The translations under genes and the position numbers were made by a program. A model generated the notes under the pieces. The model ran no database searches, was not told the origin of the DNA, and was given only the letters and a program-made list of their open reading frames with translations. A DNA stretch of 64,000 nucleotides from Thermoleophilaceae bacterium (lineage in GTDB: Bacteria > Actinomycetota > Thermoleophilia > Solirubrobacterales > JACPNS01), in NCBI GenBank assembly GCA_016462645.1, contig JAEMSX010000001.1:65999-129998 (forward strand), given 5' to 3'. This document shows, piece after piece, positions 23,347 through 25,010 of the stretch (positions are counted from its first letter, which is position 1; every line of letters begins with the position of its first letter).

Positions 23347-24036
23347 GTGACGACGACAAGACCACGCCAGAAGCGCAGTCGCGAGCGTGTCGAGAAGATC
23401 CTGCTTGCGGCCGCCGATGAGCTGGCCCGCACCGCCGATGCCGACGCCCTGACCACCACCTCGGTGTCCAGGAGTTCGGGAATCCCCGTCGCGACGATCT
23501 ACCGCTACTTCGCCGACCGGTCGGCGATCATCTCGGCCCTGATCGACCAGGAGCAGGACGAGATCAACGACCTCGTCAACGAGCGAATCGACGAACTCGA
23601 GGTGGTCACTCTCGACGCGCTCCAGGACACGATGGTGCGGGCGCACTTTGACTATCTGTCCGCGAGCCGGCGATCGATGGTGCTCTGGTTCGGCGCGCGC
23701 AGCAGCAAAGCCGTGCTCGGGCGCGTCGAGCGTCGCTATGCCTACATGGGCGAGTGGCTGATGAGCGGAGCCGTGCGAAGCGGGATGATCCGCGAGGACG
23801 CGCCGATCTACGGCGGGGAGATCATCGTCTGGATGATCGATCGCGCGTACGAGTACATCGCCCGCGCCGATCGGGATCCAGAGACCGTCGACGAGATCCT
23901 CGGCCTTGCGATCCGGATGGTTTCCCGCTCCGTCGACGAGTTCGCGACTGAACGTGGTCGCGAGGGAATCTCCCGCGAGCAGTTCTGGGCGGCGTTCGGC
24001 ACGTTCCAGCCGCCGAGCGGTCCGCTGGCGAAGTAG
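23347..24036 (+). CDS. TetR family transcriptional regulator
   Basis: ADALTTTSVSRSSGIPVATIYRYFADRSAIISALI; GTG start at 23347 preferred because the longer ORF runs into gadB. Confidence 0.85.
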   Translation: MTTTRPRQKRSRERVEKILLAAADELARTADADALTTTSVSRSSGIPVATIYRYFADRSAIISALIDQEQDEINDLVNERIDELEVVTLDALQDTMVRAHFDYLSASRRSMVLWFGARSSKAVLGRVERRYAYMGEWLMSGAVRSGMIREDAPIYGGEIIVWMIDRAYEYIARADRDPETVDEILGLAIRMVSRSVDEFATERGREGISREQFWAAFGTFQPPSGPLAK

Positions 24037-24047
24037 CGGCTTAAAGC

Positions 24048-24085
24048 GAAAGGACCGCCCCGAAGGACGGCCCTTTCTTGTTTCC
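24048..24085 (+). terminator. terminator after TetR gene
   Basis: GAAAGG-A-CCG...CGG-C-CCTTTC stem then TTGTTTCC. Confidence 0.6.
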
Positions 24086-24134
24086 TGTCTTATTACCTGT
24101 GCGACGGACAGTGAGAGTCAGCGTCCTGGCCGGT

Positions 24135-24246
24135 GGGACACGCTGTTGAAACAGCAAAGCCGACCGCTTCCGCTCACCGGTGCAAGGTTTGGATTCCTCT
24201 GAGTGGCTCGCACCACCGTTCAGAGTTCCCGCACCTCCAGCGTCCC
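24135..24246. ncRNA. candidate structured RNA, family and strand unresolved
   Basis: Nested helices: GGGAC..GTCCC closing, GCTG..CAGC, GGTGC..GCACC, GGA..TCC, CTCTGA..TCAGAG, GTGG..CCAC; sits in a 305-bp gap between convergent genes. Confidence 0.35.
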
Positions 24247-24341
24247 GCAAAACAATTGATTCAGTCGGACCACCTCCTCTCTCTGGTGGAAGCATTTAAC
24301 CACGCAGAGAGGCGGAGGTGTCCAGTAGTTTCTTCGCGGGC

Positions 24342-25010
24342 CTAGGCCGGCTGCTTGGAGGGGTCCGGCACGATGCGGATGTACGGCTTGGGCGACTCCC
24401 AGCCGTCCGGGTACTTCTCCTTGGCGGCCTCGTCGCTGACCGAGCCGGCGATGATCACGTCGTCGCCCTTGTTCCACTGCGCCGGGGTGGCAACAGCTTC
24501 CTTGGCGGTCAGCTGCAGCGAGTCGATCACGCGGAGGATCTCGTCGAAGTTGCGACCGGTCGTCATCGGGTAGATCAGGATCAGCTTGATCTTCTTGTCG
24601 GGACCGATCACGTAGACGTTGCGCAGCGCCGCATTCTGAGCCGGGGTGCGCAGCGTCGGGTCGGTGTCGATCAGCTCGAGCATGCCGTAGGCGTTTGCGA
24701 TCGAGTGGTCGGTGTCTCCGATGATCGGATACTGCGGGCGCGTGCCCTGCGTCTCCTCGATGTCGTCCGCCCACTGCTCGTGGTTTTCGACGGGGTCGGT
24801 GGAGATGCCGATCACCTTCACGCCACGCTCGGTGAACTCGGGCTCGATGCTGGCGAGATAGCCGAGCTCGGTGGTGCAGACGGGCGTGAAGTCGCGCGGG
24901 TGCGAGAACAGCACGGCCCAGCCGTCACCGATCCAGTCGTGGAAGTTGATCGTGCCTTGTGTTGTTTCTGCGTCGAAATTCGGCGCGTCGGAACCAATTG
25001 TCAGTGACAT
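24342..25010 (-). CDS. peroxiredoxin (AhpC/TSA family, 1-Cys Prx6-like)
   Basis: WAVLFSHPRDFTPVCTTELGYLA; DPVENHEQWADDIEE; IYPMTTGRNFDEILRVIDSLQL. Confidence 0.93.
   Translation of the reverse strand: MSLTIGSDAPNFDAETTQGTINFHDWIGDGWAVLFSHPRDFTPVCTTELGYLASIEPEFTERGVKVIGISTDPVENHEQWADDIEETQGTRPQYPIIGDTDHSIANAYGMLELIDTDPTLRTPAQNAALRNVYVIGPDKKIKLILIYPMTTGRNFDEILRVIDSLQLTAKEAVATPAQWNKGDDVIIAGSVSDEAAKEKYPDGWESPKPYIRIVPDPSKQPA

What the first reader, a model, noticed from the sequence alone, without database searches (positions are those of the whole stretch)
24036..24342. Candidate structured RNA gene in an anomalously long convergent intergenic gap
The TetR gene (+) and peroxiredoxin gene (-) converge but are separated by 305 bp, whereas nearly all other convergent pairs here overlap or almost touch. 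After the TetR terminator (24048-24085), 24135-24246 forms a nested series of helices: GGGAC(24135-39)/GTCCC(24242-46), GCTG/CAGC, GGTGC(24179-83)/GCACC(24231-35), GGA/TCC, CTCTGA(24197-202)/TCAGAG(24220-25), GTGG/CCAC with loop CTCGCA. An alternative local hairpin GCTGT-TGAA-ACAGC competes with the inner closing helix. A second hairpin, CCTCTCT..GTGG..CCAC..AGAGAGG, lies at about 24271-24312. I could not match it to SRP RNA, tmRNA, 6S or a known riboswitch by motif, and no convincing ORF is present. Convergent flanks argue for an independently transcribed RNA rather than a UTR.
Basis: partly seen in the sequence, partly recalled or inferred. Interest (0 to 1): 0.68.

Follow-up and report, generated by a model that had tools for sequence, protein, structure and literature searches.

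The report
Actinobacterial RNA with conserved mini-ORF
The long gap holds a real gene for a structured RNA of about 245 bases, on the opposite strand to the one proposed; it is a distant relative of a known but unexplained actinobacterial RNA (Ms_IGR-5), and across the phylum this RNA carries a near-perfect ribosome-binding site and a tiny reading frame that stays open even where its peptide changes, which suggests that it catches or senses ribosomes.

Summary
The gap (305 bp, TetR and peroxiredoxin convergent) is real and holds a conserved single-copy RNA gene, but on the MINUS strand (about 24287 to 24043). The 24271-24312 hairpin covers the putative promoter and TSS and is not kept in the closest relative.

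Relatives match Rfam RF02471 (Ms_IGR-5, Actinobacteria sRNA) below its cut-off at the same loci; the window's own copy does not match it directly.

Comparing over 230 elements shows features I found described nowhere: (1) a 5' stretch that pairs end to end with the 16S rRNA 3' tail (-30 kcal/mol); (2) a 10-15 codon ORF behind it: stop at one position in 159/162 elements (TAG, TGA or TAA), in-frame ATG/GTG/TTG start in 124/162 against 10 and 0 in the other frames, intact in 22/22 independently found members that read the same motif in another frame, so translation rather than the peptide seems selected; (3) helices P1, P4, P2 and a crossing pairing PK that tie the ORF into the fold, with compensatory changes.

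Best explanation: a free-standing RNA that captures or senses ribosomes, its fold excluding translation. Expression and function here are inferred, not shown.

The parts
24043..24287 (-). RNA gene, about 245 nt (5' end near 24287, 3' end near 24043), Ms_IGR-5-like
   Evidence: Conserved in relatives, RF02471 matches in relatives, own model R1 63.1 bits at 24214-24290 minus (the window copy was in the training set). Ends predicted, not measured.
24294..24302 (-). Putative extended -10 box, TGGTTAAAT
   Evidence: Aligned with TGCTTCAAT and similar in relatives; TAnnnT-like consensus over 230 elements
24267..24282 (-). SD1: AGAGAGGAGGUGGUCC, complementary to all 16 bases of the 16S 3' tail GGAUCACCUCCUUUCU
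   Evidence: 16S tails of relatives; duplex -30.0 kcal/mol against -10.2 for a plain AGGAGG leader
24220..24264 (-). Mini-ORF, 14 codons plus stop TGA, inferred start CTG: LNQLFCGTLEVREL*
   Evidence: Conserved ORF statistics; translation of the own copy. The CTG start is inferred from position only.
24232..24238 (-). SD2: second SD-like motif GGAGGUG inside the ORF, 9 nt before the stop
   Evidence: Invariant in alignment A1 (part of the search motif, so ascertained); kept as GGAGGT in 21 of the 22 divergent members that were read in another frame
24281..24286 (-). P1, 5' arm (CCAGAG)
   Evidence: Covariation with 24237-24242
24237..24242 (-). P1, 3' arm, inside the ORF; one A-G mismatch in the own copy
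24242..24246 (-). PK, 5' strand (GGGAC), inside the ORF
   Evidence: XGAC/GUCN complementarity in 177 of 197 elements
24135..24139 (-). PK, 3' strand (GUCCC), in the P3 loop
24228..24235 (-). P4, 5' strand (GGUGCGGG), overlaps SD2
   Evidence: Own partner better than swapped partners
24179..24186 (-). P4, 3' strand (UUGCACC region)
24220..24225 (-). P2, 5' strand (CUCUGA), contains the stop codon
   Evidence: partner triplets change with the stop type
24197..24202 (-). P2, 3' strand (UCAGAG)
24128..24165 (-). P3 hairpin: stem GGUCGG (24165-24160) / CCGGCC (24133-24128), loop with GUCCC and an own small hairpin
   Evidence: Sequence; equivalent hairpins in relatives
24043..24077 (-). Terminator-like hairpin with short U run, shared with TetR on the other strand
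   Evidence: Sequence and fold; each relative has its own GC-rich hairpin near this place

Best explanation
The gap encodes, on the minus strand, a free-standing RNA of about 245 nt: a divergent homologue of the actinobacterial sRNA family Ms_IGR-5. Its 5' end shows a ribosome-binding site complementary to the whole 3' tail of 16S rRNA, followed by a 10-15 codon ORF that usually begins with a weak start codon (UUG most often; CUG, AUC, AUA or AUU in some lineages) and ends 9 nt after a second SD-like motif. Without a ribosome the RNA folds so that P1, PK, P4 and P2 all use bases of the ORF, while most of SD1 stays unpaired. A 30S subunit that binds SD1 and translates the ORF must open this fold. 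I infer an RNA that captures ribosomes and switches between a free and a ribosome-occupied form, so sensing or buffering initiation capacity. Shown by comparison: conservation, strand signals, ORF, pairings, homology of close relatives to RF02471. Inferred: transcription here, ribosome capture, the switch, and any output on other genes.
For: Conservation and single copy; RF02471 in relatives at the same loci; SD1 complementary to the 16S tail, -30 kcal/mol; ORF: stop at one place in 159/162, in-frame start 124/162 against 10 and 0, 8/8 in RF02471 hits outside my motif, 22/22 in divergent members found by the model, read in another frame; P1 covariation; PK covariation; P4, P2; varied neighbours. 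Published: ribosomal reads on Ms_IGR-5 in M. abscessus and M. smegmatis (PMC4974804); expression in S. lividans (PMC8079986) and a separate sRNA unit in S. avermitilis (PMC8780764).
Against: No expression or binding data for this organism. The window copy has no RF02471 hit of its own and no ATG/GTG/TTG at the right place. The free minimum-energy fold of the window RNA keeps P4 and P2 but not P1. Sequences are related, so counts are not independent events. Ribosome reads on an RNA do not prove translation. No output or target is known.
Confidence: 0.58

Rival explanations
1. A dual-function or plain coding RNA: the mini-ORF makes a short peptide that acts on its own, and the structures tune its translation.
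For: ORF conserved; EV and RT motifs recur in most lineages.
Against: Codons 2-4 are free; R/C/L/P changes follow P1 base pairing; in two Thermoleophilia families the ORF reads the motif in another frame and gives unrelated peptides.
Confidence: 0.15
2. A 30S sponge: the RNA simply masks the 16S 3' tail (for example on entry to stationary phase), and translation of the ORF is incidental.
For: 16-bp complementarity, far beyond a normal SD; weak start codons.
Against: Does not explain the strictly kept stop and frame.
Confidence: 0.15
3. An ordinary noncoding base-pairing sRNA; the ORF pattern is a by-product of RNA structure.
For: RF02471 is filed as an sRNA; the stop codon lies inside helix P2.
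Against: Structure does not explain why only TAG, TGA or TAA occur at that place, why starts fall in one frame at SD spacing, or why a frame change downstream is matched upstream in 22/22 members.
Confidence: 0.08
4. A cis leader or attenuator of a downstream gene.
For: Short ORF with alternative structures resembles leader-peptide attenuators.
Against: Downstream gene here is convergent and a terminator intervenes; neighbours differ between lineages and are often convergent; S. avermitilis lists it as a separate sRNA unit (PMC8780764).
Confidence: 0.03

Closest known systems
Ms_IGR-5, Rfam RF02471 (Actinobacteria sRNA)
   Same: Same strand, same 5' end (GGAAGGAGGUGGUCCGA), GGAC, GAGGUG, GCUAG, GAAUCC, CACC and GUCC blocks in order; relatives match the model end to end
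   Different: This clade scores below the cut-off and the window copy not at all. The mini-ORF, P1 and PK are not in the Rfam consensus structure as printed
Ms1 / scr3559 and 6S RNA
   Same: Widespread free-standing structured RNAs of Actinobacteria
   Different: They bind RNA polymerase (PMC11077062, PMC9130861). No Rfam match to 6S here. In S. lividans, Ms_IGR-5 and the other listed sRNAs are separate loci; that its map position excludes scr3559 is my own reckoning
Dual-function sRNAs such as SgrS/SgrT (own knowledge)
   Same: An sRNA with a short ORF
   Different: Here the peptide is not kept between lineages while ORF and structure are
Leader-peptide attenuators (own knowledge)
   Same: Short ORF whose translation excludes RNA helices
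   Different: No conserved downstream gene; free-standing with its own terminator
infC/IF3-type start discrimination (own knowledge)
   Same: Use of AUU/AUC/AUA/CUG-like weak start codons
   Different: Only the codon choice resembles it; a link to IF3 is a guess

Membership tests
RF02471 Ms_IGR-5 | Score at or above the gathering cut-off of 45 bits, own copy | tested here: not met
   No RF02471 match for the window at E up to 10
RF02471 Ms_IGR-5 | Homology through intermediates | tested here: met
   Same-order relatives G005, G008, G010 match RF02471 (E 1.6e-6, 7.9e-7, 0.002) at the loci found with the window DNA; a model with P1 covers both groups
RF02471 Ms_IGR-5 | Transcribed sRNA | not testable with these tools
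   Shown by others for Streptomyces and mycobacteria; not for this organism
6S / Ms1 RNA | Rfam match | tested here: not met
   No match
6S / Ms1 RNA | Binding to RNA polymerase | not testable with these tools
   Needs RIP-seq
tmRNA | Rfam match, tRNA-like ends | tested here: not met
   No match in cmscan
Leader-peptide attenuator | Conserved same-strand gene downstream | tested here: not met
   Convergent gene downstream here; varied neighbours elsewhere
Dual-function sRNA with functional peptide | Peptide sequence conserved | tested here: not met
   Unrelated peptides in divergent families
Dual-function sRNA with functional peptide | Conserved translated ORF | tested here: inconclusive
   ORF conserved; translation itself not measured here

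The most novel reading that the evidence does not exclude
A phylum-wide class of trans-acting translation-sensor RNAs: the peptide does not matter, but the RNA is kept translatable so that ribosome occupancy of a mini-ORF, started at a full-length Shine-Dalgarno with a weak start codon, sets the fold and hence the activity of a separate RNA.
Probability: 0.35. Interest if true: 0.87.

Novelty: new variant of a known kind. Interest (0 to 1): 0.72.

Why it matters
RF02471 is named in few open-access papers and I found no functional study of it. The data here give it a defined anatomy (5' end complementary to the 16S tail, conserved mini-ORF, compensated pseudoknot), extend it to Thermoleophilia, Acidimicrobiia and other lineages that the Rfam model misses or scores low, and turn an unknown sRNA into specific tests in Mycolicibacterium smegmatis and Streptomyces. 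Selection for being translated without selection on the peptide would be unusual for a free-standing bacterial RNA.

Tried and rejected
Peroxiredoxin 3' UTR: rejected, the element is not tied to the peroxiredoxin. Repeat or mobile element: one copy in the genome. SRP, tmRNA, RNase P, 6S: no Rfam hit. Weak ryfA and CC2171 hits: 55 bits or more below cut-off, taken as chance. GUCC/GGAC pairing next to SD1: nearly invariant, and where GGAC varies it follows the PK partner, so not claimed. My first PK script picked terminator hairpins and was tightened. PepX of S. venezuelae (19 aa): no sign of a relation.

Full report
OBSERVATION. The TetR stop is at 24034-24036 and the peroxiredoxin stop at 24342, leaving 305 bp; Pfam confirms both names. 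Both strands fold better than shuffles, the minus strand more so: z -4.26, no shuffle of 100 as good, against z -2.05, 3 of 100. Rfam at gathering scores finds only tRNAs in the window.

CONSERVATION. A plain DNA search finds the element in 41 of 61 relatives, strongest at window 24228-24289 (a few of those matches are to the terminator region only), and once in the own genome. It is not tied to the peroxiredoxin. Aligning relatives shows that the conserved part begins, on the MINUS strand, with a -10-like box (TGCTTCAAT; own TGGTTAAAT), six bases, then ACCAGAGAAAGGAGGTGGTCC. Over 230 elements the position frequencies give A and C at the 5' end (91% each), a TAnnnT-like box just upstream and a weak TTG about 23 bases further.

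IDENTITY. At relaxed threshold relatives match RF02471 Ms_IGR-5 on that strand over the whole model with 17-38 bits, cut-off 45; hits in G005, G008 and G010 fall at the places found with the window DNA. In a phylum sample RF02471 itself is in 60 of 199 genomes, 19 over the cut-off. The window copy has no RF02471 hit even at E 10, so it is a divergent homologue by transitive evidence, not a Rfam-grade member. Papers: RNA-seq validated in S. lividans (PMC8079986); a separate sRNA unit in S. avermitilis (PMC8780764); significant ribosomal reads in M. abscessus and M. smegmatis (PMC4974804). I found no functional study; searches were limited to the held open-access library and supplements could not be searched.

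PHYLUM-WIDE SET. Listed organisms include Streptomyces, Mycobacterium, Cellulomonas, Nocardioides, Micromonospora, Acidimicrobiia and Conexibacter. A few hits inside coding sequence (L109, L118, L123, L134, L144) were judged chance and dropped. In mycobacteria the gene lies between a pabC-like and a FABP/nitrobindin-like gene (Rv0812 and Rv0813c in M. tuberculosis, from memory). Other lineages have other neighbours.

MINI-ORF. In 162 distinct elements collected without requiring an ORF, a stop stands exactly five codons after the start of GAG-GTG in 159 (126 TAG, 21 TGA, 12 TAA). In-frame stops between SD1 and GAG occur in 4, against 105 and 137 in the other frames. An ATG/GTG/TTG start 4-14 nt after AGGAGG is in frame in 124, against 10 and 0. 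In the enlarged set of 230 (here the stop was required) starts are TTG 108, ATG 48, GTG 18, and all 56 others have CTG 25, ATC 16, ATA 10, ATT 3 or ACG 2 there. Two tests used members my motif had not selected: eight RF02471 hits, 8/8 with the ORF, two of them with CTG (read by eye), and 22 divergent Thermoleophilia members found with the covariance model, 22/22 with a 10-14 codon ORF, 18 with ATG/GTG/TTG. In the latter the stop is shifted by one base relative to GGAGGUG and the upstream part is shifted to match, so the peptides (such as LSDHCGGGSS* or VSDSTGSGGTSQ*) are unrelated to GTLEVxGR* or RTREVAVR*. I take this as selection for translation, not for the peptide. The window copy reads LNQLFCGTLEVREL* from an inferred CTG; alone this would be weak.

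RIBOSOME SITE. The 16S tail in ten rRNA copies from relatives, including the same genus, reads GGAUCACCUCCUUUCU. The window RNA pairs with all 16 bases (two G-U), -30.0 kcal/mol, against -10.2 for a plain AGGAGG leader; Streptomyces and Mycobacterium examples give -29.9 and -29.3. A second SD-like GGAGGUG or GAGGUG sits 9 nt before the stop in most members (this motif was part of the search).

STRUCTURE. P1 pairs the bases just upstream of SD1 with ORF codons: 87% of cells paired, 92 cells changed on both sides against 38.8 +/- 4.2 shuffled, score 0.486 against 0.146 shuffled and at most 0.095 when slid (raw counts, where the register printed as 'shifted +1' is the right one). PK pairs ORF XGAC with GUCN in a 3' hairpin loop: G-C 148, T-A 14, C-G 11, A-T 4; 177 of 197 complementary against 128.4 by permutation, maximum 142 in 10,000 (examples, such as GUGACC/GGUCAC, AGACC/GGUCU, GCGACC/GGUCGC). 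The loop hairpin was chosen by its stem only. P4 and P2 pair better with their own partner than with swapped ones while an upstream control does not (7.83 against 7.04; 6.19 against 5.75; control 5.12 against 5.05). PK crosses P1 and P3 and shares base 24242 with P1, so PK and the last P1 pair may alternate. The unconstrained minimum-energy fold of the window RNA keeps P4 and P2 but not P1 (-99.2 kcal/mol; a constrained fold, in which P3 was entered one base off, gave -74.8), so P1 rests on covariation, not on energy.

MECHANISM (inferred). All four conserved pairings use ORF bases, so a translating ribosome and the fold exclude each other, while most of SD1 is left unpaired. A very strong SD with weak start codons suggests capture of 30S subunits with slow or conditional initiation. 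SD2 at about optimal spacing to the last sense codon could favour a pause at termination. The output on the cell is unknown.

DISTRIBUTION. Model R1 finds members in 82 of 149 class genomes and 93 of 247 phylum genomes, mostly one per genome; several families (f6, f12, f25, f27, f41) gave no match there, which may be loss or model limits. Counts are over related genomes and are not independent events.

Noticed in passing
L150 (contig labelled Acidobacteriota MAG REEB240): A good element with promoter, SD1, ORF and GGGACC in a contig labelled Acidobacteriota; possibly a misbinned actinobacterial contig.
   Followed up: no
Elements of family f19 (L318-L328): A subgroup with AUA or AUC at the start position, no GGAC and a longer loop (GGGTATCTTCTGGGA before GAGGTG); its PK and P1 equivalents were not worked out.
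   Followed up: no
G279, G314, G405, G507, G532: Two matches in one genome; could be true second copies or assembly duplicates (G279's two copies differ in sequence).
   Followed up: no
RF02471 consensus structure: The Rfam model pairs the SD1 bases GGUGGU with GCUGCC near the stop; in Thermoleophilia most of those pairs are broken, while P1 and PK, which covary, are not in the model.
   Followed up: partly
24142-24155: Small hairpin GCTGT-TGAA-ACAGC lies inside the P3 loop of the window copy; most relatives have no insertion there.
   Followed up: partly
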